Assembly: GCA_944319925.1 (NCBI GenBank)
Contig: CALUFQ010000023.1
Span: 1-45,194, forward strand
Origin: an uncultured Paraprevotella sp.
GTDB taxonomy: Bacteria > Bacteroidota > Bacteroidia > Bacteroidales > Bacteroidaceae
Length of the DNA: 45,194 nucleotides
Direction: 5' to 3'
The notes under the pieces are model-generated. The model did not search any database and was not told the origin of the DNA. It saw only the letters and a program-made list of their open reading frames with translations. Position 1 is the stretch's first letter. The number at the start of each line of letters is the position of its first letter. A program made the translations under genes and the position numbers. Shown here piece by piece: positions 3,713 to 44,545 of this stretch.

Positions 3713-4894
3713 TTATTCCACAAAAAGCACCAATCCTTTAAGATATTCGCCTTCGGGATGGTAAATGTTGACGGGATGGTCGGCAGGCTGATGCAACTGA
3801 TGAAGGATACGCACCCGACGTTTGCTTTGGGCGGCCGCCGTGAAGACAGCCATGCGGAACTGGTCTTTGGTGACCACCTGCGAACAACTGAACGTGAACA
3901 GGATGCCACCGGGACGGATTTTCTCAAATGCCTTGGCGTTAAGCCGCGTGTATCCTTTCAAGGCTTGGCGGAGCGCGTCGCGATGCTTGGCAAAAGCCGG
4001 AGGGTCGAGAACGATGAGGTCATAACGCTGCACCATCGCATCCAGATACTTGAAGGCATCCTCGGCATAAGCCTCATGCCGCGTGTCGCCGGGGAAATTC
4101 AGTGCCACATTAGCCCGTGTCAAGTCCACGGCCTTGGCCGAACTGTCCACGGAATGCACCAACTCTGCCCCGCCCCTTAAGGCATAGACACTGAAACCAC
4201 CGGTGTAGCAGAACATGTTCAGGACGCTACGTCCACGGGCATAACGTTCCAGCAGGGCACGGTTGTCACGCTGATCAACAAAGAATCCCGTCTTTTGGCC
4301 TTTCAGCCAGTCAATGTGGAACTTCAGCCCGTTCTCCGTGGCCACATTGTCCGTACTGCCGCCCACGATGAACCCGTTTTCTTGTCCCAAATCCGCCTTG
4401 AAAGGCAACGTGGTTTCGCTCTTGTAATACACGTTGAACACCTCTCCCCCCGTCACCTTCACCAAAGCGGAGGCTATCTCATGCCGCGCGAGGTGCATGC
4501 CCACGCTGTGAGCCTGCATCACGGCCGTGTGCCCATACACGTCCACCACTAATCCCGGCAAGCAGTCGCCCTCGCCATGCACCAACCGGTAGGTGTCACT
4601 GTCCTCGCGTCCCGCCACGCCGATACTCCGTCGCAGGCCGTAAGCCACTTCCAACCGCCGCGTCCAATAATCCGCATCAATCTCACGGTCTTCAAAATCC
4701 AATACCCTGACGGCGATGGAACCAATCTGCCAATGGCCCACGGCGACGAACCTCCCGTCGGCTGTGAGCACCCGCACGACCTCGCCTTCCTCCGGGTTGC
4801 CCTCCACGTGGTGGACGGCCCCTGAGAATATCCAAGGATGGAAGCGCTCCAAGCTCTCTTCCTTCCCCTTTTTCAAATATAAGTCCTTATACAT
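3713..4894 (-). CDS. rlmI: RlmI-type 23S rRNA cytosine-C5 methyltransferase
   Basis: A class I SAM-dependent methyltransferase of the RlmI/YccW family, which in E. coli makes m5C1962 of 23S rRNA. The PUA-like N-terminus starts YLKKGKEESLERFHPWIFSG, an EEHEE-like segment with FFVDQRDNR follows in the middle, and the Rossmann domain has VLNMFCYTGGFSVYA (motif I), LDPPAFAKH (motif IV) and FTFSCSQVV with the catalytic Cys. I chose the ATG at 4894 (MYKDLYLK) because the family begins there; an upstream ATG at 4912 would add six residues. Length about 393 residues, as expected. It is the last gene of a minus-strand trio with the exonuclease and DUF5063 genes. Confidence 0.88.
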   Translation of the reverse strand: MYKDLYLKKGKEESLERFHPWIFSGAVHHVEGNPEEGEVVRVLTADGRFVAVGHWQIGSIAVRVLDFEDREIDADYWTRRLEVAYGLRRSIGVAGREDSDTYRLVHGEGDCLPGLVVDVYGHTAVMQAHSVGMHLARHEIASALVKVTGGEVFNVYYKSETTLPFKADLGQENGFIVGGSTDNVATENGLKFHIDWLKGQKTGFFVDQRDNRALLERYARGRSVLNMFCYTGGFSVYALRGGAELVHSVDSSAKAVDLTRANVALNFPGDTRHEAYAEDAFKYLDAMVQRYDLIVLDPPAFAKHRDALRQALKGYTRLNAKAFEKIRPGGILFTFSCSQVVTKDQFRMAVFTAAAQSKRRVRILHQLHQPADHPVNIYHPEGEYLKGLVLFVE

Positions 4895-4931
4895 GATGGT
4901 ATGTGTTTGCATTTACCCAAATTAGACTCCC

Positions 4932-5576
4932 TCAAGCCTCGGCCGCCGCCCCGTCGCCCGGCTCGGGCACGACGGCGAGCGTGTAGCCATGGTTGGCTTT
5001 CAACGATTCCAGTTCGCGATAGAGGCGTATGCAGGCCCACGCGTCGGTGGCCGCATAGAGTTTTTGCCCTTCGGTCAGCACATCGGCCTCCCAGTTGGTC
5101 AGTCGCTGCCCCTTGCTGATTTTCTGTCCGAATATGTTGGCATAAAGCTTCTGCAAACTCATGTCCTGAATGCCGAAAGCCTTCACGTAGTCCTGGAGTT
5201 CAAGGAACGCATGTGGTTCAAACGCGCCGCGCTTGTGGAGCGAAGCAAAGTCATCGCGCAGGGAAAGCCCCACTTTCATCACCCGCTCGTCCTGCAACAA
5301 ACGGCGCACACTGTCGGGCACTCCGATGCGGTTCAGGCGGAACAAGAAACAAGTGTCGTCCGTGGAAACCTGCAAAAGAGCCACCTTGTTGACCGCCCCT
5401 TTACGAAAAGAAGGACGCGTTTCAGTGTCCACCCCAACCAATGCGCTGTCCATCAAATAGCTCACGGCCTTGTCGGCCTCTGCTTCCGTCTGGATCACAA
5501 TGATGCGCCCTCCAAACAAAGCACGCGGCAAAGCCGGAATCAGTTTCTTGTCGAATTTATTATATATGGTTTTCAT
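4932..5576 (-). CDS. 3'-5' exonuclease, RNase D-like (DEDDy)
   Basis: A 214-residue DEDD-superfamily exonuclease of the single-domain RNase D type. Exo I is GVDTETRPSF (Asp and Glu), Exo II is KVGLSLRDDFASL, and Exo III is YAATDAWACIRLY with the Tyr-x3-Asp arrangement of the DEDDy subclass. All four metal-binding acidic residues are present. No HRDC domain is attached, so the substrate may be RNA or DNA; tRNA or small-RNA trimming is a guess. It lies six bases after the DUF5063 gene and shortly before the RlmI gene, which suggests a nucleic-acid maintenance operon. The last ten residues are Ala/Gly/Glu-rich and probably disordered. Confidence 0.88.
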   Translation of the reverse strand: MKTIYNKFDKKLIPALPRALFGGRIIVIQTEAEADKAVSYLMDSALVGVDTETRPSFRKGAVNKVALLQVSTDDTCFLFRLNRIGVPDSVRRLLQDERVMKVGLSLRDDFASLHKRGAFEPHAFLELQDYVKAFGIQDMSLQKLYANIFGQKISKGQRLTNWEADVLTEGQKLYAATDAWACIRLYRELESLKANHGYTLAVVPEPGDGAAAEA

Positions 5577-5582
5577 CGTCTT

Positions 5583-6155
5583 TCAATCATTCCATCCGTC
5601 TTCACAACCACATTCTTCCCCTTCATCGTCCTGATGCGGGACATACGCGACCCTGTGGAGCGCACGTAAGGCGTTGGCCAACGTTTGCCCCCAATAAAGG
5701 GAAAAAGAATAGCCCACCTCTGCCACAGCCTCATACATGTTTTCGTCCACCCCGACACGGTAGGTCTCCACGAAGTTCTTCAGTGCCTGGTACAGGTCTG
5801 CCAAATCCTCCGAAATAGCCTTCATGGCCGGCTCGTCGCTGAAACGCACCTCGTCGTTACAGAAATCCAAATAATCGTCCTTGTCTCCCATGATGCCGGC
5901 CAACGTCAGGCGCATGAACTCATAGTCTTGTTCCGATACGAAAGCCTCGGGCAAGAAGTCTTCCGCCCCTTCCACCAAAGGAAGCAAGGAAGCTTTCAGG
6001 TAGAGCAAGGGCAATATTTTGAGCACCGTGCCGATGAAATCCTTGCGCTTGCGCCCCTCCGACTGCTCCAGATAGGCACAAAACTCCGCCGCCACCGTGA
6101 CAAACTCTATCGTGTCACGGGAATACACCACATCTTTCTTTCCGATTGCCTCCAT
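5583..6155 (-). CDS. DUF5063 family protein
   Basis: A 190-residue acidic, mostly helical cytoplasmic protein. The sequence and its place (upstream of a 3'-5' exonuclease and divergent from ftsK) match the DUF5063 family of Bacteroidales, whose function is unknown. There is no signal peptide or membrane segment. The C-terminal tail is very acidic and holds a Cys-Gly-Cys (EECGCEDGWND), which could bind a metal, though nothing else supports this. First gene of the minus-strand operon, with its own TAACTTTG promoter core facing it. Confidence 0.75.
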   Translation of the reverse strand: MEAIGKKDVVYSRDTIEFVTVAAEFCAYLEQSEGRKRKDFIGTVLKILPLLYLKASLLPLVEGAEDFLPEAFVSEQDYEFMRLTLAGIMGDKDDYLDFCNDEVRFSDEPAMKAISEDLADLYQALKNFVETYRVGVDENMYEAVAEVGYSFSLYWGQTLANALRALHRVAYVPHQDDEGEECGCEDGWND

Positions 6156-33546: not shown

Positions 33547-33577
33547 TTTGCCATAGATAAGTTTCGGCGTATTTTTG
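33547..33577 (+). promoter_or_regulatory. Promoter of the lipid/polyene operon
   Basis: TTTG at 33547-33550, 19 bases, TATTTTTG at 33570-33577: a full Bacteroidetes-type promoter. The ATG of the first gene is at 33587, only nine bases after the -7 box, so the transcript would have almost no leader. Confidence 0.7.
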
Positions 33578-33586
33578 CGCCTGCTT

Positions 33587-34756
33587 ATGAAGAATGTGAC
33601 AGTAAAAACAGTATCCACGAAAAGCGAGTTGAGGGACTTCGTAAGGCTTCCCCGACGGATTTACGCGCATTATCCCTGCTACGTCCCCGACATGGAATCA
33701 GACGTGCGAGACACGTTCTCCCCTCAAAAAAACGTAGAACTGGAAAGCAGCGACATCCAACCATTCATCGCTTACGCCGACGAAGAGCCCGCAGGACGTA
33801 TCGTCGGCATCGTCAACCACCGGGCCAACAAGCAATGGCACACCCGCAACGTGCGGTTCGGTTTCCTTGAATTCACCGATGACAACGACGTGTCGCGCGC
33901 ACTGCTGGAAGCCGTGGAGGAATGGGGCCGCAGGCAGGGCATGACCCGCATACAAGGCCCCATGGGATTTTCCGACCTCGACAAGGAAGGCATGCTCGTG
34001 GAGGATTTCGACATGAACGGTTCCATGACCGCACTCTACAATCCGCCTTACTATCCTGTGCATTTGGAACAGTTGGGCTATGAAAAGGAAGTAGATTGGC
34101 TGCAGGCACGCATCAACATCCCGCGGGAAGTTCCGGAAAAATATGCCCGCGTGGCCCGCCTGACCCGCGAAATGTTCGGGCTGCACACACGGGGGCTCAC
34201 CAAAAAGGAGATTTACAGCGGGTACGGACAGAAAATATTCCAGCTGATCAACCTCGCCTACGCCCCCATCTTCGGGTATGCGGAACTTTCTGAGAGGCAA
34301 ATCGACTTTTATCTCAACCGTTACGTTCCCCTGCTGGACACCAGGATGCTTTCCGTGGTGGAAGACGAGAAAGGCGGACTGGTCGCGGTGGCCATCACGA
34401 TGCGCAGCCTTGCCCTTGCCCTGCAAAAAAGCCAAGGACGGCTGTTCCCTTTCGGATGGTTTCACCTGCTCCGCGCCCTGACTTGCCAACGGGAAGACAA
34501 GGCTGAAATGTTGCTCGTGGCCGTCCATCCCGACTACCAAGGCTTGGGAGTCAACGCGCTGTTTTTCGAAAACCTGATTCCGGTCTATAACCGATTGGGC
34601 ATCCGCTGGGCCGAAACCGGCCCCCAACTGGAGAGCAACGTCCGGGAACTGTCGCAATGGAAACCGCTGAGTCCGAGATTCGTCAAAAGGAGGCGGTGTT
34701 ACACGAAAGATTTATACCATACAGACAACAAAGACATACAATGGAAAAAAGAGTAG
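33587..34756 (+). CDS. Tandem GNAT-like acyltransferase, YghO-like
   Basis: A 389-residue cytoplasmic protein from the ATG at 33587 (an in-frame TTG at 33575 would lie inside the promoter). It has two GNAT-like halves. The N-terminal half (about 20-165) contains RIYAHYPCYVPDMESDV, GRIVGIVNHRAN and IQGPMGFSDLDKEGMLVEDF; the C-terminal half has the acyl-CoA or acyl-ACP binding turn HPDYQGLGVNALFFENL. The same layout is seen in E. coli YghO, and to my memory the bacterial ceramide synthase of Caulobacter is of this GNAT-like kind. N-acylation of an amine with the chain made by the genes that follow is therefore possible. This is inference from family and place. Its 3' end overlaps the ketosynthase gene by 16 bases. 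Confidence 0.75.
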   Translation: MKNVTVKTVSTKSELRDFVRLPRRIYAHYPCYVPDMESDVRDTFSPQKNVELESSDIQPFIAYADEEPAGRIVGIVNHRANKQWHTRNVRFGFLEFTDDNDVSRALLEAVEEWGRRQGMTRIQGPMGFSDLDKEGMLVEDFDMNGSMTALYNPPYYPVHLEQLGYEKEVDWLQARINIPREVPEKYARVARLTREMFGLHTRGLTKKEIYSGYGQKIFQLINLAYAPIFGYAELSERQIDFYLNRYVPLLDTRMLSVVEDEKGGLVAVAITMRSLALALQKSQGRLFPFGWFHLLRALTCQREDKAEMLLVAVHPDYQGLGVNALFFENLIPVYNRLGIRWAETGPQLESNVRELSQWKPLSPRFVKRRRCYTKDLYHTDNKDIQWKKE

Positions 34757-35961
34757 TAATCACAGGCATGGGCATCTGGTCGTGCCTAGGCACGACGCTG
34801 GACGAAGTGCGCGACTCCCTCTACGCCGGACGAAGCGGCATCGTGTATAGCCCAGAGCGCAAGGAAGCCGGATTCCGTTCCGCCCTCTGCGCCGACATCC
34901 CCCGCCCCGACCTGAAACCCTTCATCCCACGGGGTCCCCGGCAGTTCATGCCCGAGGAAGCCGGGTATGCCTACATGGCCACCCGGCAGGCGTTGGAGAA
35001 CGCCCGGCTGGACACCGACTATATCGCCAGCCATGAGATAGGCCTCATCTACGGCAACGACTCCGTGGCAGAAGCCACCATGCGCGCCTTAGACAAATTC
35101 CGGGAATATCACGACACGGCGGCCTGCGGGAGCGGAGCCATTTTCCAATCCATGAACTCCACCGTGACGATGAACCTGGCCTGCCTGTTCAGGCTGAGGG
35201 GCATCAACCTGACGGCCTCTGCGGCCTGCGCCTCCGGTTCACACGCCATCGGACTTTCCTTTCTCTTGATACAAAACGGGTTGCAGGACTGCATCGTGTG
35301 TGGCGGGGCACAAGAAGCCAACATGTATAGCGTGGCGGCCTTCGACGGCATCCAGTCATTCTTCCTCCGCGAAGATGCCCCCGCGAAAGCCTGCCGCCCG
35401 TTCGACCGCGACCGCGACGGGCTTGTGCCGGGCGGCGGGGCGGCCACGCTCGTGGTAGAGAGCTACGAACACGCCGTGAAGCGCGGAGCACCCATTTTGG
35501 CCGAGATCATCAGTTGGGGATTTTCCGGCAACGGCAACCACATCTCCACCCCGGACATCGACGGCCCCGCCCGCTCATTGGAACTCTGCCTGCAACACGG
35601 CGGCATCCGTCCCGAAGAAATTGGCTACATCAACGCACATGCCACTTCGACCCGCATCGGCGATGCCCGCGAAGCGCAAGCCATCGCCCGCTTCTTCGGC
35701 AGTTTGCAAACGCCCGTCACGTCCACGAAAAGCCAGACAGGGCATGAGATGTGGATGGCCGGCGCCAGCGAAATCATCTATTCCACGCTGATGATGAAAA
35801 ACGGATTCATCGCCGGCAGCCTCAATTTCGAACGCCCGGACGAAGACACGGCCTGCATCAACGTGCTGCCCGATCGGCGGGAAACGCATTTCGACATGTT
35901 CCTCTCCAACTCTTTCGGATTCGGAGGTACCAATTCCACGCTCATCATCAAAAATCTATAA
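34741..35961 (+). CDS. Beta-ketoacyl-ACP synthase
   Basis: A 406-residue condensing enzyme of the FabB/FabF class. I chose the ATG at 34741 (MEKRVVITGMGIWSCLG, the standard family start), which overlaps the previous gene by 16 bases. The catalytic set is complete: Cys163 in SAACASGSH, His300 in NAHATST, Lys330 and His335 in STKSQTGH; the C-terminal GFGGTNS loop is also intact. It extends an acyl-ACP by two carbons from malonyl-ACP. It is the only ketosynthase in the operon, so either it works as a homodimer or a partner is encoded elsewhere. It resembles the ketosynthases of aryl-polyene-type clusters in context more than housekeeping FabF. Confidence 0.93.
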   Translation: MEKRVVITGMGIWSCLGTTLDEVRDSLYAGRSGIVYSPERKEAGFRSALCADIPRPDLKPFIPRGPRQFMPEEAGYAYMATRQALENARLDTDYIASHEIGLIYGNDSVAEATMRALDKFREYHDTAACGSGAIFQSMNSTVTMNLACLFRLRGINLTASAACASGSHAIGLSFLLIQNGLQDCIVCGGAQEANMYSVAAFDGIQSFFLREDAPAKACRPFDRDRDGLVPGGGAATLVVESYEHAVKRGAPILAEIISWGFSGNGNHISTPDIDGPARSLELCLQHGGIRPEEIGYINAHATSTRIGDAREAQAIARFFGSLQTPVTSTKSQTGHEMWMAGASEIIYSTLMMKNGFIAGSLNFERPDEDTACINVLPDRRETHFDMFLSNSFGFGGTNSTLIIKNL

Positions 35962-35987
35962 ACTATAACGACAAAAACAAACCCATT

Positions 35988-36236
35988 ATGACACGCGAAG
36001 AAATCGTCAAACAAGTGAACAGCCTGCTTGCTGAAGAATTCGAAGTTAACGCCACAAACTTCACCCCGGATGCCAACGTGAAGGAAACGCTCAATCTGGA
36101 CAGCCTGAGCCTGGTGGACTTGGTCGCCCTCGTGCAACAGACCTACAAAGTGAAGATACCCGCGAGCGACCTGCGCGGCATCCAAACCTTCAACAACCTA
36201 TATGATTACATCGAATCCCATCTGCCACAGGCATGA
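35988..36236 (+). CDS. Acyl carrier protein
   Basis: An 82-residue ACP. The phosphopantetheine-binding serine is Ser39 in the motif LDSLSLVDLV (DSL), preceded by an acidic helix I and followed by the acidic helix II region that docks to partner enzymes. It should be the dedicated chain carrier for the neighbouring ketosynthase, reductase and hotdog proteins. Its last codons overlap the start of the next gene by four bases (ATGA). No phosphopantetheinyl transferase is encoded in the window, so a housekeeping one must serve it. Confidence 0.93.
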   Translation: MTREEIVKQVNSLLAEEFEVNATNFTPDANVKETLNLDSLSLVDLVALVQQTYKVKIPASDLRGIQTFNNLYDYIESHLPQA

Positions 36237-36655
36237 TTCACGAAGACATACGGACACTGATTCCGCAACGCGCTCCCATGCTGATGGTGGATGCGCTGCT
36301 GGACGTGGGGCTTGAAGGCGGACGCACCTGTCTCACCATCCGCCACGGAAACTATTTCCTTGACGAAGACGGGCGGATGGAAGAGGCCGGCATCCTGGAA
36401 CACATCGCACAATCTGCTTCCGCCGTGGCCGGACACCATGCCGTCGCAGCCGGGGCGGCCTCGCCGCCTGTCGGTTACATCGGGGAAATCAAAAAGTTCA
36501 AATGCCACAGACTGCCCCGGGAGGGCGAAACGCTGCACACCACCATCACGCTCGGACCGGAAGCAGGCGGAGTGACTTTGCTGAGGGGCGAAACCCGCAC
36601 GGGAAATGCCCTCGTGGCCGACACCCAAATGAAGATTTATCTCCCAACGGAATAA
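36233..36655 (+). CDS. ApeP-like hotdog protein, Glu half-site
   Basis: A 140-residue hotdog-fold protein like ApeP of aryl-polyene clusters, with LIPQRAPMLMVDALL at the start and EAGILEHIAQSASAVAGH on the central helix. Compared with FabZ (HFPxxPxxPG then ExxAQ), the catalytic Glu is kept as Glu56 (LEHIAQ), but the His position is Tyr41 (NYFLDED). Alone it should therefore lack half of the dehydratase site. PVGYIGEIKKFKCHRLPREG matches the following strand pair of the family. It overlaps the ACP gene by four bases and is followed after 11 bases by a second hotdog gene with the opposite loss. A heteromer of the two is the natural reading. Confidence 0.8.
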   Translation: MIHEDIRTLIPQRAPMLMVDALLDVGLEGGRTCLTIRHGNYFLDEDGRMEEAGILEHIAQSASAVAGHHAVAAGAASPPVGYIGEIKKFKCHRLPREGETLHTTITLGPEAGGVTLLRGETRTGNALVADTQMKIYLPTE

Positions 36656-36666
36656 CCCAAACGACC

Positions 36667-37050
36667 ATGCGACTGGAAAACCACTATTATGAGCTCATCA
36701 GCATGCACACGGACGGACAAAGCGGACGGTTCTACATCGCCCTCTGCCCGGATTGCGAGGTCTATCGGGGACACTTCCCGGACAACCCGGTATGCCCGGG
36801 AGTGTGCCACATCCAGACAGTAAAGGAACTTACGGAACGGCTGACGGGCTGCCGCTTGCGCATCCGCGCCATCCGCCTGTGCCGCCTGACCGCCGTGGCC
36901 ACGCCTGCCACTTGCCCGGAACTTCGGGTGGACATCCGTTTGTCGCCTGCGGACAACGGGTTTCACGTGCAAGCCCGCATGGCCGATGCCGAACGGACTT
37001 ACATGGAGTATCAAGGCGAGATGGAGAAAGACAAACCTGAAACAGAATGA
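36667..37050 (+). CDS. FabZ/ApeI-like hotdog protein, His half-site
   Basis: A 127-residue hotdog-fold protein started at the ATG at 36667. It has the FabZ loop YRGHFPDNPVCPGV with the catalytic His36. At the place of the FabZ Glu (14 residues on) it has Gln50 (CHIQTVKEL). The first part, LENHYYELISMHTDG, and the C-terminal strands fit the ApeI/FabZ group. With His but no Glu it complements the previous gene product, which has Glu but no His. Its stop overlaps the start of the oxidoreductase gene by four bases. Role: dehydration of 3-hydroxyacyl-ACP to 2-enoyl-ACP, probably as a heteromer. Confidence 0.8.
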   Translation: MRLENHYYELISMHTDGQSGRFYIALCPDCEVYRGHFPDNPVCPGVCHIQTVKELTERLTGCRLRIRAIRLCRLTAVATPATCPELRVDIRLSPADNGFHVQARMADAERTYMEYQGEMEKDKPETE

Positions 37051-38528
37051 AATACGACGTGCTCATCATCGGTGGCGGACTGGGCGGACTGGAGTGCGGC
37101 TACATACTTTCACGTGCCGGACAACGTGTACTCATATTGGAACAAGGACGGCAACCGGGCGGATGCCTGCAAAGTTATTGCCGGAAAGGCATGGAGTTCG
37201 ACACCGGTTTCCATTATGCCGGCGGGTTGGACGAAGGGCAATCGTTGCATGCCGCCTTCCGCCATCTAGGACTGCTGGAACTCCCTTGGCGACGGCTGGA
37301 TGCCGACAACTTCGACTGCGTGACCATCGACCGTCACTCCTTCCCGTTCGCACAAGGCCATGATGCTTTCGCCAACCGCCTCGCCGAAGCCTTTCCCGCC
37401 GAACGGGCAGCCCTGCACCGGTATGCCGACTTACTGAAACGGTCGGCAAGACTGCAATTCGCGGCATTCAATCCCCAATCATCCGACATGGACTTGATTA
37501 CGGAACTCATGGAAACCCCGGCCTACAAGTATCTCTATGAGCACTTCAAAGACCCGTTGCTCATCAACGTGCTGAGCGGGGCTTCGCTCAAGATGGAACT
37601 CAGGCCGGAATCTCTTCCTTTGTTCGCGTTCCTGCACGGAAACGGTTGTTTCATCGAAAGCAGCTGGCGGCTGAAAGGCAGTGGCTCGTTAATCACCGAC
37701 TCCTTGGTTCAAGGCATCCGTGCACAAGGCGGGGAGATAGTTTGCCAAAGCGAAGTGCAGGAGCTGGTGGAAAAGGACGGGAAACTGACACAAGCCGTAT
37801 GCACCAATGGGGAAACCTACGAAAGCCGGCTGTTCGTCAGCGACATCCATCCGGCACAAACTTGCCGCATGGTGCAGAACAGCCAACGGATAAAGCCACT
37901 CTATCGCGAACGCATCCAATGCCTGCCACAGACATTCGGCATGTTCACCGTCTCGCTCCGTTTCGCGCCCGGCAGGCTCCGCTACTTCAACCGCAACCAC
38001 TACATCTACCGGAAACCCGACGTGTGGACATTCCACTTGGACAACCGTCCCGTGAGCGGCGTACTGGCCAGTTGCCGTGTTCCGGAAGACGACAGTGGAT
38101 ATACCCGGCAGGTGGACTTGCTCACCCCGATGAATTGGGAATACTGCAAGGCATGGAAAGACCGCCGGGACAATTCCTACGAAGAAATGAAAAAACAAAC
38201 AGCCGATGAATGCATCGCCTTGGCAGAAAGCATCCTGCCAGGCCTGGGCGAAGCGGGAACCGCTTACACCAGCACACCGCTGACATGGAACCGCTACACG
38301 CTCACCCCTGAAGGCAGTGCCTACGGCCTGCGCAAAGATTGCCGTGCGGCCTTGCAGACCTTCCTCTCACCGCGCACCCCCATCCCCAACCTCTTCCTCA
38401 CGGGACAGAACGTGGGACTCCATGGACTGCACGGGGTCACGATGACCGCCTTCCAGACCTGCGCCGGAATATTGGGAAAAGATGCCGTATGGAAAATGCT
38501 CAACGGGAACTGCAAGGGCGGGAACTAA
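37047..38528 (+). CDS. CrtI/RetSat-like FAD-dependent oxidoreductase
   Basis: A 493-residue FAD enzyme of the phytoene desaturase / carotenoid isomerase / retinol saturase group. The dinucleotide motif is VLIIGGGLGGLECGYILSRA at the N-terminus, followed by the family's EQGRQPGGCLQSY and the FDTGFHYAGG segment. The C-terminal FAD-contact block is LFLTGQNVGLHGLHGVTM. Known relatives desaturate, isomerise or saturate conjugated polyenes. No FabI-type enoyl reductase or carotenoid gene is close, so this enzyme may edit the double bonds of the ACP-bound or released acyl chain. It overlaps the upstream gene by four bases. Confidence 0.85.
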   Translation: MKYDVLIIGGGLGGLECGYILSRAGQRVLILEQGRQPGGCLQSYCRKGMEFDTGFHYAGGLDEGQSLHAAFRHLGLLELPWRRLDADNFDCVTIDRHSFPFAQGHDAFANRLAEAFPAERAALHRYADLLKRSARLQFAAFNPQSSDMDLITELMETPAYKYLYEHFKDPLLINVLSGASLKMELRPESLPLFAFLHGNGCFIESSWRLKGSGSLITDSLVQGIRAQGGEIVCQSEVQELVEKDGKLTQAVCTNGETYESRLFVSDIHPAQTCRMVQNSQRIKPLYRERIQCLPQTFGMFTVSLRFAPGRLRYFNRNHYIYRKPDVWTFHLDNRPVSGVLASCRVPEDDSGYTRQVDLLTPMNWEYCKAWKDRRDNSYEEMKKQTADECIALAESILPGLGEAGTAYTSTPLTWNRYTLTPEGSAYGLRKDCRAALQTFLSPRTPIPNLFLTGQNVGLHGLHGVTMTAFQTCAGILGKDAVWKMLNGNCKGGN

Positions 38529-38554
38529 AAACAGGCACATAAAAAAGAACAATC

Positions 38555-39283
38555 ATGAAATATGCATTAGTCACAGGAGGCAGCCGCGGAATAGGCCGCG
38601 CCGTCTGCGTCAAACTGGCCCGAATGGGCTACCACGTCCTCATCAATTACGCAAGCCGTGCAGAAGAAGCCCAAAAAACTTTGGAACTGGTGCGCGAAAC
38701 GGGACAAGACGGCGAAATCCTGCCATTCGACGTCAGCCGGCACGAAGAAGTATGCGCCGCCATCAACGAATGGGAAAACCGACATCCGGACGAATACATC
38801 GAAGTGTTGGTCAACAACGCGGGCATCCGTAGCGACAGCGTACTGGCTTTCATGCCCGACAAGGACTGGCACCGCGTGTTGGAAGTCACCCTCACAGGAT
38901 TCTACAATGTGACACAAGCCGTACTGCAACCCATGCTGGTACGCAAATACGGACGCATCATCAACATGGCCAGCGTCAGCGGGCTCAAAGGACAACCGGG
39001 ACAAACCAATTACTCCGCAGCCAAAGGCGGACTCATCGCCGCCACAAAAGCATTGGCCCTCGAAGTGGCCCGCAAGCAGGTGACCGTCAACGCCGTGGCA
39101 CCCGGATTCATCGAGACCGACATGACCGGCGACTTGGACGAAGCGTCCCTGAAGAACAGCATTCCGCTCCTGCGCTTCGGCCATCCCGAGGAAGTGGCCG
39201 AACTCGTGGGATTCCTCGCCTCGCCCCAAGCTGGATACATCACCGGAGAGGTGGTTTCCATCAACGGCGGGCTTCATACATAG
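38555..39283 (+). CDS. FabG-like 3-oxoacyl-ACP reductase
   Basis: A 242-residue classical short-chain dehydrogenase. NADP(H) motif TGGSRGIG at residues 7-14, NNAG at about residues 88-91, then the Ser of MASVSG and Tyr-x3-Lys in NYSAAKGG. The end VVSINGG is typical of FabG. It reduces the keto group made by the ketosynthase. It stands 26 bases after the oxidoreductase gene and 12 before the thioesterase gene, with ApeQ of aryl-polyene clusters as the nearest role. Confidence 0.93.
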   Translation: MKYALVTGGSRGIGRAVCVKLARMGYHVLINYASRAEEAQKTLELVRETGQDGEILPFDVSRHEEVCAAINEWENRHPDEYIEVLVNNAGIRSDSVLAFMPDKDWHRVLEVTLTGFYNVTQAVLQPMLVRKYGRIINMASVSGLKGQPGQTNYSAAKGGLIAATKALALEVARKQVTVNAVAPGFIETDMTGDLDEASLKNSIPLLRFGHPEEVAELVGFLASPQAGYITGEVVSINGGLHT

Positions 39284-39295
39284 GAAAAAACGCAC

Positions 39296-39736
39296 ATGAA
39301 AAAGACAGAATTGGAAGACATCTGCCGGATGACGGTGCGTTTCAGTGAGATTGACTCCATGCAACGCGCTTGGCACGGCTCATTCGTCACCTATTTGGAA
39401 GACGGGCGTGAATCGTTCGGGCGGCATTATCCCGGCATCGGGTACGCCGACATGAGCCGGGCAGGCATCTATGCGGCCATCTATGACCTCCGCATCCGCT
39501 ACCTGGCCCCGCTCACGCTGGACGACGCGGCAAGGATACACACACGTTATGTTTACCATCCCGGCGCACGAATAGACTTCCTCTATGAGATCTATCGCGA
39601 ACGGGACAACAGGTTGTGTGCCAAGGCGAACACCACGCAGTTGTTCGTGGACACGGAAGGTGTCCTGCTGGTGGACATACCTGACTTCTTCAAGGAATGG
39701 CAAGACAAACATTTGGGAGGCGCACCGCAACCATGA
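39296..39736 (+). CDS. Acyl-ACP/acyl-CoA thioesterase, 4HBT (YbgC-like)
   Basis: A 146-residue hotdog thioesterase. The family active-site region is FSEIDSMQRAWHGSFVTYLE with the catalytic Asp20 and a nearby His27, followed by the long central helix and the strand DLRIRYLAPLTLDD. It probably releases the finished chain as a free acid or edits wrong chains. Its stop overlaps the start of the membrane protein gene by four bases. Confidence 0.85.
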   Translation: MKKTELEDICRMTVRFSEIDSMQRAWHGSFVTYLEDGRESFGRHYPGIGYADMSRAGIYAAIYDLRIRYLAPLTLDDAARIHTRYVYHPGARIDFLYEIYRERDNRLCAKANTTQLFVDTEGVLLVDIPDFFKEWQDKHLGGAPQP

Positions 39737-40770
39737 GAAAAAAAATCAACAACCTGCTTTTCTCCATCGGCCTGGCGGCAGTCATCGTCATGCTATGCAC
39801 ATTCGAAGTGAGCTTTGCGGAACTATGGGCATACATCACCCGGGCAGGCTATTGGCTGGCGGCCATCTTGGGATTATGGATCGTGCTCTACCTCATGAAT
39901 GCATGGGCTTGGCGCGTCATTATCCTCGGGAGCGGGCCGTGCCCCATCAGTTTCTTCCGCCTGCTGAAACTGACCATCTCCGGATTCGCCCTCAACTATG
40001 CCACTCCAATCGGACTGCTGGGCGGCGAGCCTTACCGCATCATGGAATTGTCCAAGTACATTGACGTGCGGCGCGCCACTTCTTCTGTCGTACTGTTCGC
40101 CATGATGCACATATTCTGCCATTTCTGGTTCTGGGCGACCGGCATTGTGACGTATCTGGCACTGGCCGCTGCGGGCAAAGTCCCGTTGGAAACCGGTACG
40201 GTGGTGGTACTGGTGTTCATCGGCCTGTTCTGCTGGGCAGGAATTTACCTGTTCATGAAAGGATACAAGAACGGAATGGCGGTAAGATTCATCCATTGGC
40301 TGGGACATTTGCCCGGCCTGAAAAAATGGGGGGCACATTTCATTGCAGCCCACGAAGAAGATTTGGAAAAGATAGACCGGCAAATCACGGAACTGCAAGG
40401 ACAGAACAAACGTTCCTTCTTCGGCAGCTTCTGCTTGGAATATGTCGGCCGGCTCTGTCAAAGTTTTGAAATTTTCTTCATGCTGCTCCTCTTCGGCATC
40501 GACGGGGGCGGTGGTGCAGCGGGCTACCTGCTGACGTTTCTTCATGCGTTCCTCATCCTTGCCTTCACTTCGCTGTTCGCCAACCTGCTCGGATTCATCC
40601 CCCTGCAACTGGGCGGACGGGAAGGCGGATTCGCCATTTCCGTGGCACAGCTGGGCATGACCGGCGGCACGGCCATGTTCATCAGCATCATCAGCCGCGT
40701 CCGCGAGTTGTTTTGGGCTGCGGCCGGCATCTTGCTCATGAAAGTGGGAAAAGACAACAAGCCACATTAG
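39733..40770 (+). CDS. Flippase-like membrane protein (LPG synthase TM / YbhN family)
   Basis: A 345-residue inner-membrane protein started at the ATG at 39733, which overlaps the thioesterase stop; the open frame upstream to 39697 has no better start. About eight hydrophobic helices are seen. The family mark is the GFALNYATPIGLLGGEPYR loop (N-P-GG-EP), and a second GG-REGG loop near the end (QLGGREGGFAI). The soluble lysyl-transferase domain of MprF is absent, so only the membrane part that moves or binds lipids is kept. In this operon it may carry the acyl product or a lipid made from it across the inner membrane. Confidence 0.82.
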   Translation: MRKKINNLLFSIGLAAVIVMLCTFEVSFAELWAYITRAGYWLAAILGLWIVLYLMNAWAWRVIILGSGPCPISFFRLLKLTISGFALNYATPIGLLGGEPYRIMELSKYIDVRRATSSVVLFAMMHIFCHFWFWATGIVTYLALAAAGKVPLETGTVVVLVFIGLFCWAGIYLFMKGYKNGMAVRFIHWLGHLPGLKKWGAHFIAAHEEDLEKIDRQITELQGQNKRSFFGSFCLEYVGRLCQSFEIFFMLLLFGIDGGGGAAGYLLTFLHAFLILAFTSLFANLLGFIPLQLGGREGGFAISVAQLGMTGGTAMFISIISRVRELFWAAAGILLMKVGKDNKPH

Positions 40771-40834
40771 ACCTCGTTCGAAACGACCTTGGAAGACACA
40801 AACAAGCATAAAACCGTAAAAAAACGAGTGCAGA

Positions 40835-43396
40835 ATGAAAAAAACTTTGATGCTTTGGCTGGTTCTTTGGTTTTCCGTATGCGCCGCACAAGCACAGCGG
40901 ACACGAGTGGAAGGCATTGTGAAAGATTCCCTCACGGGGGAAGGCTTGCCATACGCCGCAGTGATATGGGAAAACTCCAATGTCAAGACCGCCACCGACA
41001 TCAACGGCCGCTTCTCCCTTTCCGTCCCCAACCGGAAAGGGACTTTGCTGATTTCATACATGGGTTATCATACGCGTGAAATCAACCTTTCCCCCCAAGG
41101 GCGGCGCATCAGCCTGGACATCCCGATGGCCGATGCCGACATTGCGCTGGACGAAGTCACCGTGAAACCTAAGCGGGAAAGGTATCGCAGGCGGGACAAC
41201 CCGGCCGTGGAATTCGTGCGCCGGGTCATTGAGTCGCGTGATGCCAACGACCCGAAAGCCCACGACTTCTACAGTTACGACCACTACGAAAAGATACTCT
41301 TCGCCAAAAACGATTATACTTTCAAACCCAAGGCTGACGGCAAGAAAGGCCGCTTCGACTTCCTGCAGGAATTTGTGGATACGCTGGATGCCGGCACCAC
41401 CATCCTTCCCGTATCGGAAAAGGAGAAGATGGAGACCGTATATTTCCGAAAGTCCCCCCAATCGGAGAAACGTGTCGTGAAAGGATACAAGTCTTCCGGC
41501 ATCGACGAGATATTTTCCAGCGACGGCGTACACCAATTTCTGAGCGAAGTGTTCCGCGAGGTAAACATCTTCCAAAACAACATCCCGCTATTCCTGCAAC
41601 GTTTTGTCAGCCCGCTTTCCACCATCGGCCCCAGCTACTACAAATATTACCTGCTCGATACGCTCACGGTCGGCGGAAAGCAGTGCGCGGATCTTTCTTT
41701 CGTGCCCTTCAACTCGGAGACTTTCGGCTTCACCGGCCATCTGTACGTCACGCTCGACTCCACCTATTTTGTCCAAAAAGCCGTGCTCAGCGTACCGCGG
41801 AAAATCAACCTGAACTTCGTCTCGCGGATGGCCATCGAACAGGAGTTCACGCGCACGGCGGACGGCACCCGCCTGCCCGTGAAAGACGACATACAGGTCA
41901 ACTTCAAGCTCACGGAAAACAGCAAAGGCTTGTATGCCCGCCGCCTGAACATCTATACCCGCCATTCGTTCGAAGTACCCGCGCCCGAGGAAGCCCAAGT
42001 GTTCCGGCAAGCCCCCGCATCCGTCACGTTGGACGATGCCTACCGCCAAACGGAAGACTTTTGGGAGGAACATCGTCCGTCGGAAGCCGTCCGCCGCAAC
42101 CCCAACTCAACGGAAAAACTGATGGAACGGCTGAACTCTGTCCGAGCCTATCGTTGGGGCAAGGAAATCTTCTCCAGCATCGTGGCGGGCTACGTGCCCA
42201 CCCACCGCAACCGGGAACTCAGCAAGTTCGACTTCGGCCCCGTCAATTCCATCGTCAACCACAACACGCTGGAAGGCATGCGCTTACGCGTCGGCGGAGC
42301 CACCACCACGGCACTCAGCCGCCGCTGGTCGTTCGATGGCTATGTGGCCTACGGCGTGAAAGACCGGAAAATGAAATACGACGCGCTGGCGGAATATTCG
42401 TTCAACGACCGCAAGGAGTTCCGCAAGGAATTCCCCGTGCACTCGCTCCGCTTCGAATACATGTACGACATCAACAAGCTGGGGCAGAACTACATGTACA
42501 CCAGCAAGGACAACATGATGCTGATGATTCGCCGCAAGAAAGACCGCAACATCTCTTACCTGCGGCTGGCGGAACTGACCTACACCCGCGAACACTACAA
42601 CGGTCTCTCCTACAACGCCATCGTGCGCAACCGCCGCGAATACGCCACTCCATACGCCGTGTTCGAACGTTTTGACCCCGACGGGTCGGCACGTCCCGTC
42701 GGACATTACGACATGACCCAGTTGGAAATAGGCATCCGCTATGCCTACAAAGAGAAGTTCTACCAGACCCGCAACCTGCGCGTCCCCATCACCTTCGATG
42801 CCTGGATTGTCAATGCCAACCACGTCATGGCAAAGAAAGGTTTCCTCGGCACGGATTACGATTACCAGCGCACGGAAATCGGCCTGCAGAAACGGTTCTG
42901 GTTCTCCGCCTTCGGCTACCTCGATGTCATTGCCAAGGGCGGGAAGGTGTGGAGCAAAGTCCCCTACCCGCTCCTGCTCCTGCCCAACGCCAACCTGACC
43001 TACACCATCCAAAAGGAATCCTACACCAACATGAACGCCCTGGAGTTCATCAACGACGAATACGCGTCGTGGGACATCACTTATTACATGAACGGCAACC
43101 TGCTCAACCGCCTCCCGCTCATCCGGAAACTCAAATGGCGCGAAGTGTTCTGCTTCCGCGGGCTGTGGGGGCATCTGACGGACAAGAACAATCCCATGAA
43201 GCACCCATCCGAAGGACTGTTCCGCTTCCCCGCCGGCACCCGCACCATGGGACGCACCCCTTACATGGAAGCCAGCGTGGGCATTGAGAATATCTTCAAG
43301 TTCCTGCGCATCGACTACGTGTGGCGGATGACCTACCGCGACAATCCCGGCATCCAGCAGCGGGGTGTGCGGATGACCATGTCGCTTTCGTTCTAA
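40835..43396 (+). CDS. DUF5686 outer-membrane protein with CarboxypepD_reg-like domain
   Basis: An 853-residue exported protein. The signal peptide is MKKTLMLWLVLWFSVCAAQAQ. A CarboxypepD_reg-like domain covers about residues 22-105 (YAAVIWENSNVKTATDINGR), followed by the DUF5686 region (RRRDNPAVEFVRRVIESRD) and a long tail rich in alternating strands that ends MTMSLSF, with the C-terminal Phe of outer-membrane barrels. No TonB-dependent plug is present, so it is not a SusC. DUF5686 proteins are common in Bacteroidetes with no settled role. The place suggests outer-membrane insertion or transport of the operon's product, or simple co-regulation. Confidence 0.82.
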   Translation: MKKTLMLWLVLWFSVCAAQAQRTRVEGIVKDSLTGEGLPYAAVIWENSNVKTATDINGRFSLSVPNRKGTLLISYMGYHTREINLSPQGRRISLDIPMADADIALDEVTVKPKRERYRRRDNPAVEFVRRVIESRDANDPKAHDFYSYDHYEKILFAKNDYTFKPKADGKKGRFDFLQEFVDTLDAGTTILPVSEKEKMETVYFRKSPQSEKRVVKGYKSSGIDEIFSSDGVHQFLSEVFREVNIFQNNIPLFLQRFVSPLSTIGPSYYKYYLLDTLTVGGKQCADLSFVPFNSETFGFTGHLYVTLDSTYFVQKAVLSVPRKINLNFVSRMAIEQEFTRTADGTRLPVKDDIQVNFKLTENSKGLYARRLNIYTRHSFEVPAPEEAQVFRQAPASVTLDDAYRQTEDFWEEHRPSEAVRRNPNSTEKLMERLNSVRAYRWGKEIFSSIVAGYVPTHRNRELSKFDFGPVNSIVNHNTLEGMRLRVGGATTTALSRRWSFDGYVAYGVKDRKMKYDALAEYSFNDRKEFRKEFPVHSLRFEYMYDINKLGQNYMYTSKDNMMLMIRRKKDRNISYLRLAELTYTREHYNGLSYNAIVRNRREYATPYAVFERFDPDGSARPVGHYDMTQLEIGIRYAYKEKFYQTRNLRVPITFDAWIVNANHVMAKKGFLGTDYDYQRTEIGLQKRFWFSAFGYLDVIAKGGKVWSKVPYPLLLLPNANLTYTIQKESYTNMNALEFINDEYASWDITYYMNGNLLNRLPLIRKLKWREVFCFRGLWGHLTDKNNPMKHPSEGLFRFPAGTRTMGRTPYMEASVGIENIFKFLRIDYVWRMTYRDNPGIQQRGVRMTMSLSF

Positions 43397-43439
43397 AAGG
43401 AATGAGATACATCTATTATATATAAGTAAACCGAATCAC

Positions 43440-44132
43440 ATGGGAAAAGAAAATTCGAAAAGGATTCAGACTTCAATCCTCAACAACGCAGAAAAGAAAG
43501 TTTTGATGTGGCTGGCCGGGAAACAGCCCGCCTGGATGAACTCGGACATCATGACCGGCATCGGCGTATTCGGAGCCGTGCTCTACATGCTAGGCGGCTA
43601 TTTGTCCAACGCCAACCTCAATTACCTGTGGCTGGCCTCGTTCGGACTGGTGCTCCACTGGTATGGCGACAGCCTGGACGGCACCCTCGCGCGGGTGCGC
43701 CACGAGGAACGTCCCGTCTTCGGCTTCTTCATCGACCACACGCTGGATGCCGTGACCACGGCCATGATTTTCATCGGAGCCGGCCTTTCGCCCATTTTCC
43801 GCATGGACGTGGCCTTGTTCGCCCTTTCCGGCTATCTGTGCCTCTCGGTCTATACCTACATCCTGACCATCCTGAAAGGCGAGTTCCGCCTGACCTACGG
43901 GGGCATGGGCCCCACCGAGTTCCGCCTGCTGCTCATTCTGCTCAACATCGTTTACATGTACACCCCCCTGCAGGACATCCGCATCCAGATGTGCGGTTCC
44001 AGCCTGAACGTGTTCGACATCGCCTGCGCCGTCGTCGCCCTGCTTCTTTTCATCGTTTACATCATCCAATTGGCCAAAGATGCCCCCGGTTTCCTGATAC
44101 AAGACAAAGAAAAAGGCAGCCACGATGCATAA
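43440..44132 (+). CDS. CDP-alcohol phosphatidyltransferase
   Basis: A 230-residue inner-membrane enzyme that joins a CDP-linked group to an alcohol in phospholipid synthesis. The signature Dx2DGx2ARx8-9Gx3Dx3D is complete: DSLDGTLAR, then after nine residues GFFIDHTLD. About six hydrophobic helices. Substrates vary widely in the family (glycerol-phosphate, inositol-phosphate, serine, choline), and none can be chosen here. The gene follows the DUF5686 gene by 43 bases and is the last of the run before a new promoter core, so it may supply a lipid head group to the product of the operon. That link is inference. Confidence 0.9.
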   Translation: MGKENSKRIQTSILNNAEKKVLMWLAGKQPAWMNSDIMTGIGVFGAVLYMLGGYLSNANLNYLWLASFGLVLHWYGDSLDGTLARVRHEERPVFGFFIDHTLDAVTTAMIFIGAGLSPIFRMDVALFALSGYLCLSVYTYILTILKGEFRLTYGGMGPTEFRLLLILLNIVYMYTPLQDIRIQMCGSSLNVFDIACAVVALLLFIVYIIQLAKDAPGFLIQDKEKGSHDA

Positions 44133-44149
44133 CCGGGCATTTATTTTCG

Positions 44150-44157
44150 TAACTTTG
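44150..44157 (+). promoter_or_regulatory. -7 box before the DUF486 gene
   Basis: TAACTTTG followed by C, 22 bases before the DUF486 start. It suggests that DUF486 and TtcA-like genes have their own transcript even though they follow the operon closely. Confidence 0.55.
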
Positions 44158-44179
44158 CGCCCGAAAAAAAGCCACACAC

Positions 44180-44545
44180 ATGAACGCAGTCTATACCATC
44201 CTGCTGCTCATCTGCAGCAACATCTTCATGACCTTGGCTTGGTACGGCCACCTGAAACTTCAACAAACGGGCGTATCGTCCCATTGGCCTCTCATCGGCG
44301 TCATCCTGTTCTCTTGGATTATCGCCTTTGCCGAATATTGTTGCCAGGTGCCGGCCAACCGCATCGGCTTCGACGGCAACGGCGGCCCCTTCAACCTGAT
44401 GCAGCTCAAGGTGATTCAGGAAGTCATCTCACTCATTGTGTTCACAATTATCGCGACGGTGCTGTTCCAGGGGCAGGCTTTGCATTGGAACCATCTCGCA
44501 GCCTTTCTCTGCCTCATCCTCGCCGTCTATTTCGTTTTCCTCTGA
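44180..44545 (+). CDS. DMT-superfamily membrane protein, DUF486
   Basis: A 121-residue inner-membrane protein with four hydrophobic helices (starting YTILLLICSNIFMTLAWYGH) and the DUF486 mark EYCCQVPANRIGFDG. DUF486 is a short DMT-like family of unknown role. Its stop shares a base with the start of the next gene (TGATG). Start chosen at the first ATG after the promoter core. Confidence 0.85.
   Translation: MNAVYTILLLICSNIFMTLAWYGHLKLQQTGVSSHWPLIGVILFSWIIAFAEYCCQVPANRIGFDGNGGPFNLMQLKVIQEVISLIVFTIIATVLFQGQALHWNHLAAFLCLILAVYFVFL

What the first reader, a model, noticed from the sequence alone, without database searches (positions are those of the whole stretch)
33547..44132. Compact lipid/polyene-type biosynthetic operon without a classical enoyl reductase
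Seen: ten head-to-tail genes behind one full promoter at 33547-33577, with overlaps at 34741-34756, 36233-36236, 37047-37050 and 39733-39736. They encode a GNAT-like acyltransferase, ketosynthase (C163/H300/H335), ACP (Ser39), two hotdog proteins, a CrtI/RetSat-like FAD enzyme, FabG, a thioesterase, a flippase-like protein, DUF5686 and (after a 43-base gap) a CDP-alcohol phosphatidyltransferase. Known: ketosynthase, ACP, ApeI/ApeP-like hotdogs and FabG without FabI make polyenes in aryl-polyene systems. Inference: this is a reduced relative lacking the second ketosynthase/chain-length factor, ammonia-lyase, glycosyltransferase and MMPL exporter in view, and the acyl product is passed to an amine or a lipid. 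The product may be a new Bacteroidales lipid.
Basis: partly seen in the sequence, partly recalled or inferred. Interest (0 to 1): 0.72.

Follow-up and report, generated by a model that had tools for sequence, protein, structure and literature searches.

The report
One-ketosynthase polyene-type lipid operon
This gut-type bacterium carries a compact, conserved gene set that looks built to make an unusual unsaturated fatty chain and attach it to a membrane lipid, using a cut-down relative of the machinery that makes yellow aryl-polyene pigments.

Summary
In detail: ten co-directional genes at 33587-43396 plus a CDP-alcohol phosphotransferase, with the stated overlaps, active-site residues and promoter, under purifying selection. 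The FabG passes NCBI's curated flexirubin FlxB model. ACP, hotdogs and thioesterase are nearest to ApeF, ApeP, ApeI and ApeK among the E. coli proteins compared, the hotdogs by small margins over FabZ. The FabB-like ketosynthase belongs to a supported Bacteroidales clade that branches from among ketosynthases of full aryl-polyene clusters. This genome also has a full flexirubin-type cluster and a separate acpP-fabF, so this is not primary fatty-acid synthesis. The operon occurs without a KS/chain-length-factor pair in 26 of 63 tabulated genomes (two bins doubtful). The near-constant core is acyltransferase, KS, ACP and a CrtD-like FAD enzyme; reductase and dehydratases are in cis or elsewhere. 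Best reading: a single-KS polyenoyl synthase whose acyl product is modified by the FAD enzyme and transferred to a membrane lipid. The product is inferred. Against: nine Prevotella-type genomes keep HD1 without HD2. New variant of a known kind.

The parts
33547..33577 (+). Bacteroidetes-type promoter TTTG-N19-TAnnTTTG
   Evidence: exact match; boxes and spacing kept in G010 and G008 while the spacer diverged in G008
33587..34756 (+). GNAT-type acyltransferase, YghO-related
   Evidence: PF00583 28.8 bits, cut-off 20.7; 24% to E. coli YghO, E 6e-31, 46% to own paralogue on C30; own clade in tree
34741..35961 (+). FabB-like ketosynthase, single, C163/H300/K330/H335
35988..36236 (+). acyl carrier protein, ApeF/AcpP-like, Ser39
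   Evidence: PF00550; best match in the compared set ApeF 45 bits, AcpP 40 bits
36233..36655 (+). HD1, ApeP/FabZ-like hotdog with catalytic Glu, His replaced by Asn
   Evidence: ApeP 37.0 bits, FabZ 29.6; Glu in 62 of 62, Asn in 56 of 62 homologues
36667..37050 (+). HD2, ApeI/FabZ-like hotdog with catalytic His, Glu replaced by Gln
   Evidence: ApeI 35.8 bits, FabZ 32.0; Pfam ApeI-like 20.5 bits, under its cut-off 28.5; His in 41 of 41, Gln in 25 of 41 homologues
37047..38528 (+). CrtD/CrtI-type FAD oxidoreductase
38555..39283 (+). 3-ketoacyl-ACP reductase, FlxB/ApeQ-type
   Evidence: NF053542 FlxB 400.3 bits, cut-off 340
39296..39736 (+). 4HBT thioesterase, ApeK-like
   Evidence: PF13279; ApeK 51.2 bits, YbgC 34.7
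39733..40770 (+). LPG_synthase_TM/flippase-like membrane protein (near the operon in 7 of 88 loci)
   Evidence: PF03706
40835..43396 (+). DUF5686 protein with CarboxypepD_reg domain, probably outer-membrane
   Evidence: PF18939; 33 of 88 loci, also in minimal operons such as L101 and L105
43440..44132 (+). CDP-alcohol phosphatidyltransferase, neighbour, probably not part of the pathway
   Evidence: PF01066; 6 of 88 loci: same strand in window, G008, G010, opposite strand in G013, G015, L082

Best explanation
A single-ketosynthase relative of the aryl-polyene/flexirubin pathway that can stand alone. Acyl chains on the dedicated ACP are extended by the FabB-like KS, reduced by the FlxB-type ketoreductase and dehydrated by the ApeP/ApeI-type hotdogs. 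With no enoyl reductase in the operon, the chain keeps conjugated double bonds. The CrtD-like FAD enzyme then desaturates or isomerises the chain; the thioesterase edits or releases it; the GNAT acyltransferase joins it to a membrane lipid or amine; membrane and outer-membrane proteins move the product outward. Shown here: gene content, family kinship, active-site residues, conservation, purifying selection, occurrence without a KS/CLF cluster. Inferred: polyene product, starter, chain length (short, by analogy with ApeR), acceptor, FAD-enzyme reaction, transport.
For: FlxB equivalog above its curated cut-off. Best matches among the E. coli proteins compared: ACP-ApeF, FabG-ApeQ, HD1-ApeP, HD2-ApeI, TE-ApeK. 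Complementary halves of a dehydratase site, as described for the single-site ApeI/ApeP heterodimer (PMC8041823 passages). Separate acpP-fabF on C14. Core conserved: ACP in 69 of 80, FADox in 66 of 70, GNAT or PlsC-like acyltransferase in 64 of 80 loci with enough flank. HD1 found elsewhere in 10 of 11 genomes whose GNAT-type operon lacks it; three of these carry a FlxB-HD1-thioesterase-HD2 cassette and a fourth the same without FlxB in view, at a contig end. FADox fold closest to a carotenoid desaturase. dN/dS 0.06-0.29 for the eleven genes against G008. ApeR, a homodimeric KS, makes polyenes of up to four double bonds with the Ape proteins in vitro (PMC8358021 introduction).
Against: Of 14 genomes searched for HD2, 10 show only a short match inside frames of 461-501 residues (probably LpxC-FabZ, recalled): nine named Prevotella or Prevotellaceae without a full cluster, and L103 with one. 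In those nine HD1 still has Glu (9 of 9) and Asn (8 of 9, Thr in L100), so an obligate HD1/HD2 pair is not universal. The ApeP and ApeI matches beat FabZ by only 7 and 4 bits, and the Pfam ApeI-like cut-off is not reached. HD2 absence shows no link to the full cluster (p=0.21). The KS is closer to FabB than to ApeR (264 against 208 bits), so a FabB-like product is possible. No starter-activating enzyme is present. No product has been observed. A FabI elsewhere in the genome (not searched for) could still reduce the chain.
Confidence: 0.6

Rival explanations
1. Accessory part of the full aryl-polyene/flexirubin pathway: the operon feeds or tailors the product of the C10 cluster.
For: The genome carries both. 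In L150 and L159 the KS-FADox-FabG trio sits beside full-cluster genes. Two full-cluster KS (L023, L024) branch next to the compact clade. Operons lacking HD1 or FabG in cis are commoner in genomes with a full cluster (GNAT-type: HD1 missing 9 of 18 against 2 of 24, p=0.004; FabG missing 12 of 18 against 3 of 24, p=0.0008).
Against: 26 of 63 tabulated genomes have the operon and no KS/CLF by KS count (two of the 26, L091 and L101, are bins with a single KS match), among them G008, G010, G013, G015 and G030. The loci are related, so the p-values overstate the evidence.
Confidence: 0.15
2. Specialised fatty-acid synthesis without polyene: the operon makes a hydroxy-, mono-unsaturated or otherwise modified fatty acid for an N-acyl lipid such as a sphingolipid, with enoyl reduction supplied by the cell.
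For: KS nearest to FabB. Hotdogs only slightly nearer ApeP/ApeI than FabZ. GNAT belongs to a family matched at E <= 1e-30 in 287 of 393 Bacteroidales genomes; that the family is the bCerS/YghO kind rests on YghO similarity and recall. HD2 missing in nine genomes without a full cluster.
Against: FlxB above its cut-off and a carotenoid-desaturase-like enzyme point to conjugated chains. A PlsC-like acyltransferase replaces the GNAT in 20 of 80 loci.
Confidence: 0.2
3. A decaying remnant of an aryl-polyene cluster.
For: Fewer genes than the full cluster; gene loss series among relatives; KS branches from among full-cluster KS.
Against: Frames intact; dN/dS 0.06-0.29 against G008; same gene order from GNAT to DUF5686 in G008, G010, G013, G015.
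Confidence: 0.03

Closest known systems
Aryl polyene clusters (E. coli CFT073 apeA-R; Acinetobacter, Xenorhabdus)
   Same: ACP, ketoreductase (ApeQ 44%), ApeP/ApeI-like hotdogs, ApeK-like thioesterase, no enoyl reductase in the operon
   Different: no ApeO/ApeC, ApeH, ApeB, ApeJ, ApeD or ApeM counterpart in the operon; FabB-like KS, with E. coli ApeR outside its group; adds a CrtD-like FAD enzyme and a GNAT
Flexirubin cluster of Chitinophaga/Flavobacterium (flxA-flxY)
   Same: FlxB ketoreductase above the curated cut-off
   Different: no methyltransferase, ammonia-lyase or ligase in the operon; in this genome a FlxJ methyltransferase is on C10 and no PF00221 gene was found; dialkylresorcinol genes were not searched for
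Anammox/Desulfotalea ladderane or PUFA-type FASII clusters
   Same: ACP, FabF, FabZ and a phytoene-desaturase-like enzyme together (passages of PMC2649909 and PMC4790861)
   Different: no radical SAM enzyme and no KS with altered active site; no sequence comparison made
YghO/bacterial ceramide synthase-like GNAT acyltransferases
   Same: 24% identity to YghO over 378 columns
   Different: separate clade tied to this operon; acceptor unknown; the bCerS link is recalled

Membership tests
Aryl polyene gene cluster | KS-chain length factor pair (ApeO/ApeC type) | tested here: not met
   one KS in the operon; KS2 and CLF of this genome are on C10
Aryl polyene gene cluster | starter-activating enzyme (ApeH ligase or ammonia-lyase) in the cluster | tested here: not met
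   no such domain in the operon; no PF00221 in the genome at E <= 0.001
Aryl polyene gene cluster | ApeQ/FlxB-type ketoreductase | tested here: met
   NF053542 400.3 bits, cut-off 340
Aryl polyene gene cluster | ApeP/ApeI heterodimeric dehydratase | tested here: inconclusive
   ApeP 37.0 against FabZ 29.6 bits, ApeI 35.8 against FabZ 32.0; Pfam ApeI-like under its cut-off; split dyad; HD2 missing in ten of 14 genomes searched; no complex modelled
Aryl polyene gene cluster | MMPL exporter and LolA-like carrier | tested here: not met
   absent in the window operon; MMPL present in 33 of 63 tabulated loci, LolA-like in 31 of 63
Primary fatty-acid synthesis (FAS II) | the KS and ACP are the cell's FabF/AcpP | tested here: not met
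   acpP and fabF together on C14
Ladderane-type cluster | radical SAM enzymes beside FASII and CrtI-like genes | tested here: not met
   no such Pfam domain among the eleven proteins
Bacterial ceramide synthase (bCerS) | N-acylation of a sphingoid base | not testable with these tools
   only YghO kinship shown
CrtI/CrtD carotenoid desaturase family | fold of the family over most of the chain | tested here: met

The most novel reading that the evidence does not exclude
A widespread, unnamed class of Bacteroidales lipids: conjugated non-aryl polyenoyl chains made by one homodimeric KS with no chain-length factor, then reworked (desaturated, isomerised or cyclised) by a CrtD-like flavoenzyme, and attached as an amide or ester to an outer-membrane lipid in gut and rumen bacteria.
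Probability: 0.3. Interest if true: 0.75.

Novelty: new variant of a known kind. Interest (0 to 1): 0.52.

Why it matters
If it works as proposed, a large set of gut and rumen Bacteroidales make a conjugated lipid without the KS-CLF pair thought to set polyene length, and couple type II polyketide chemistry to a carotenoid-type flavoenzyme. It would give a defined gene set (acyltransferase, KS, ACP, FAD enzyme) by which to find new membrane lipids at the host-microbe interface, and it would split what genome-mining programs may now report simply as 'aryl polyene'.

Tried and rejected
Primary FAS II: rejected, acpP-fabF on C14. Remnant: rejected on dN/dS and conservation. CDP-alcohol phosphotransferase as a pathway member: rejected, because it is near the operon in 6 of 88 loci and on either strand. 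Use of the ApeR aryl-stacking tyrosine to decide between aryl and non-aryl starters: led nowhere, since the compact and full-cluster KS examined (35 and 7 rows) lack a Tyr at the E. coli ApeR position, and my alignment does not reproduce the published Tyr135-Met138 correspondence. GNAT structure from six sequences: pLDDT 49.9, not used further. PDB search with GNAT: one match, E 0.91. HD1 against PDB: none at E <= 0.01. HD2 against PDB: 6qsr, E 0.0032, deposited as 'AMP-dependent synthetase and ligase'; that it is ApeI is recalled. Cinnamoyl-lipid (phytoene-dehydrogenase, 6-pi) analogy: recalled; the eight of 44 papers listed gave no support, so it is left out of the argument. Papers: PMC3992019 parts 1-2 of 5; PMC8358021 part 1 of 4 and passages; PMC8253772, PMC8041823, PMC2649909, PMC4790861, PMC11334938, PMC9278070, PMC8241843 passages only.

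Full report
What is there. The window is contig C23 of a genome of 3.11 Mb whose relatives by search are Bacteroidales. Ten genes run head to tail from ATG 33587 to 43396, with a CDP-alcohol phosphotransferase after 43 bases. The promoter is an exact Bacteroidetes-type match, and in G008 both boxes are kept while the spacer has changed. The -7 box ends 9 bases before the ATG, so the message would be nearly leaderless.

The same genome. A full flexirubin-type cluster lies on C10: FlxB, FabB-like KS, FlxJ methyltransferase (578 bits, cut-off 560), two ACPs, KS and CLF, hotdogs, thioesterase, LolA, GT2, MMPL and a FAD enzyme 30% identical to the one here. acpP-fabF is on C14. No aromatic ammonia-lyase was found at E <= 0.001; the control rang in 5 of 14 genomes.

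Relatives. With the window and seven loci of held genomes, 88 loci were annotated. Of loci with enough flank, the ACP is present in 69 of 80, the FAD enzyme in 66 of 70 (L144, counted as missing, has one), an acyltransferase upstream in 64 of 80: GNAT in 44, a PlsC-like protein in 20, never both. The two acyltransferase types suggest that the acyl group is handed to a membrane acceptor, but leave amide or ester open. In the 50-row KS tree 37 rows including the window form one clade (100/99). Two KS of full clusters, L023 and L024, branch just outside it (97/97), and the C10 KS with four more forms the next group; all 44 are apart from FabB, and E. coli ApeR, a long branch, falls outside. The compact KS may thus have come from a full cluster. 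At E <= 1e-140, 112 of 393 Bacteroidales genomes match, which includes the full-cluster KS; by my count of that list 28 of 393 score at least 650 bits, the range of the compact clade.

In cis or in trans. I tabulated 69 genomes (61 of the 80 named loci plus 8); 63 of the loci have at least 5.5 kb downstream. Presence of a full cluster was judged by four or more KS matches, L081 by hand; L091 and L101 have one KS match each and were counted as without. The operon occurs without KS/CLF in 26 of 63. In GNAT-type loci HD1 is missing in 9 of 18 genomes with a full cluster and 2 of 24 without (p=0.004), FabG in 12 of 18 and 3 of 24 (p=0.0008); HD2, thioesterase, MMPL and LolA show no such link. The loci share ancestry, so these are not independent. 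In 10 of 11 genomes lacking HD1 in the GNAT-type operon, HD1 is elsewhere; L102 gave none. In L101, L105 and L113 genomes it lies in a FlxB-HD1-thioesterase-HD2 cassette; in the L107 genome HD1, thioesterase and HD2 lie at a contig end with no FlxB in view; in L108, L116, L118 and L088 genomes hotdogs stand apart from the operon; in L094 and L098 genomes HD1 lies on the contig and among the KS matches of the full cluster. FlxB above its cut-off was found in 9 of 11 genomes searched for it, not in those of L099 and L107. So ketoreductase and dehydratase seem to be required but movable, and the core is acyltransferase, KS, ACP and FAD enzyme.

Results against. Of 14 genomes searched for HD2, ten show only a short match inside frames of 461-501 residues, the housekeeping kind by recall: L089, L090, L091, L093, L096, L097, L100, L106, L111, all without a full cluster, and L103 with one; L099, L104, L108 and L110 have a real match. 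In the nine, HD1 keeps Glu in 9 and has Asn in 8, so it cannot pair with HD2 and lacks the His. The KS is nearer FabB than ApeR. CDP-AP and the LPG-TM protein are not conserved members.

Mechanism. Shown: genes, kinship, site residues, conservation, dN/dS 0.06-0.29 against G008. Inferred: iterative extension without enoyl reduction, giving a conjugated chain, short by analogy with ApeR, which makes up to four double bonds in vitro (PMC8358021 introduction); action of the FAD enzyme on that chain; transfer to a lipid; export. Starter and acceptor are unknown. Enoyl reductases elsewhere in the genome were not searched for.

Known or new. Aryl polyenes are already reported in bulk from rumen genomes (2,800 of 14,814 clusters by antiSMASH, some in Prevotella; PMC8241843 passages), so members of this family may be hidden there. 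The titles and abstract starts that I saw (30 of 95 papers, 1 of 1, 4 of 4, 3 of 3, 15 of 62) describe no such single-KS operon; that covers only the open library held here, and only what was listed. Ladderane-type clusters share the FASII plus phytoene-desaturase idea but include radical SAM enzymes, absent here. I file it as a new variant related to aryl-polyene pathways, not as a member, because the KS-CLF pair and starter enzyme were tested and not met.

Noticed in passing
L006 (G000:C10:42000-61900): A full flexirubin-type cluster with FlxB and FlxJ above curated cut-offs, in a genome where no aromatic ammonia-lyase was found; a frame that looks like an acyl-CoA ligase by eye lies near it (L168 8845-10191).
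   Followed up: partly
33570-33590: Only 9 bases lie between the -7 box and the first ATG of the operon, suggesting a nearly leaderless transcript; kept in G010 and G008.
   Followed up: partly
L150 and L159: The KS, FAD enzyme and FabG form a trio beside genes of a full aryl-polyene cluster, without ACP or hotdogs of this family next to them; the trio, with no other family gene detected, also occurs in L129, L134, L136, L149, L156 and L158, three of them at contig ends.
   Followed up: no
L115 around 3935-6035: A trace of HD1 is detected between ACP and FAD enzyme although no room for an intact frame is left; possibly a decayed gene.
   Followed up: no
44125-44545: A small membrane protein gene (121 aa), 99% and 97% identical in G010 and G008, preceded by a TAACTTTG -7-like box, follows the CDP-AP gene.
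   Followed up: no
window 1710, 3629, 20944, 26619: Four other exact promoter matches; five in all against 0.46 expected.
   Followed up: no
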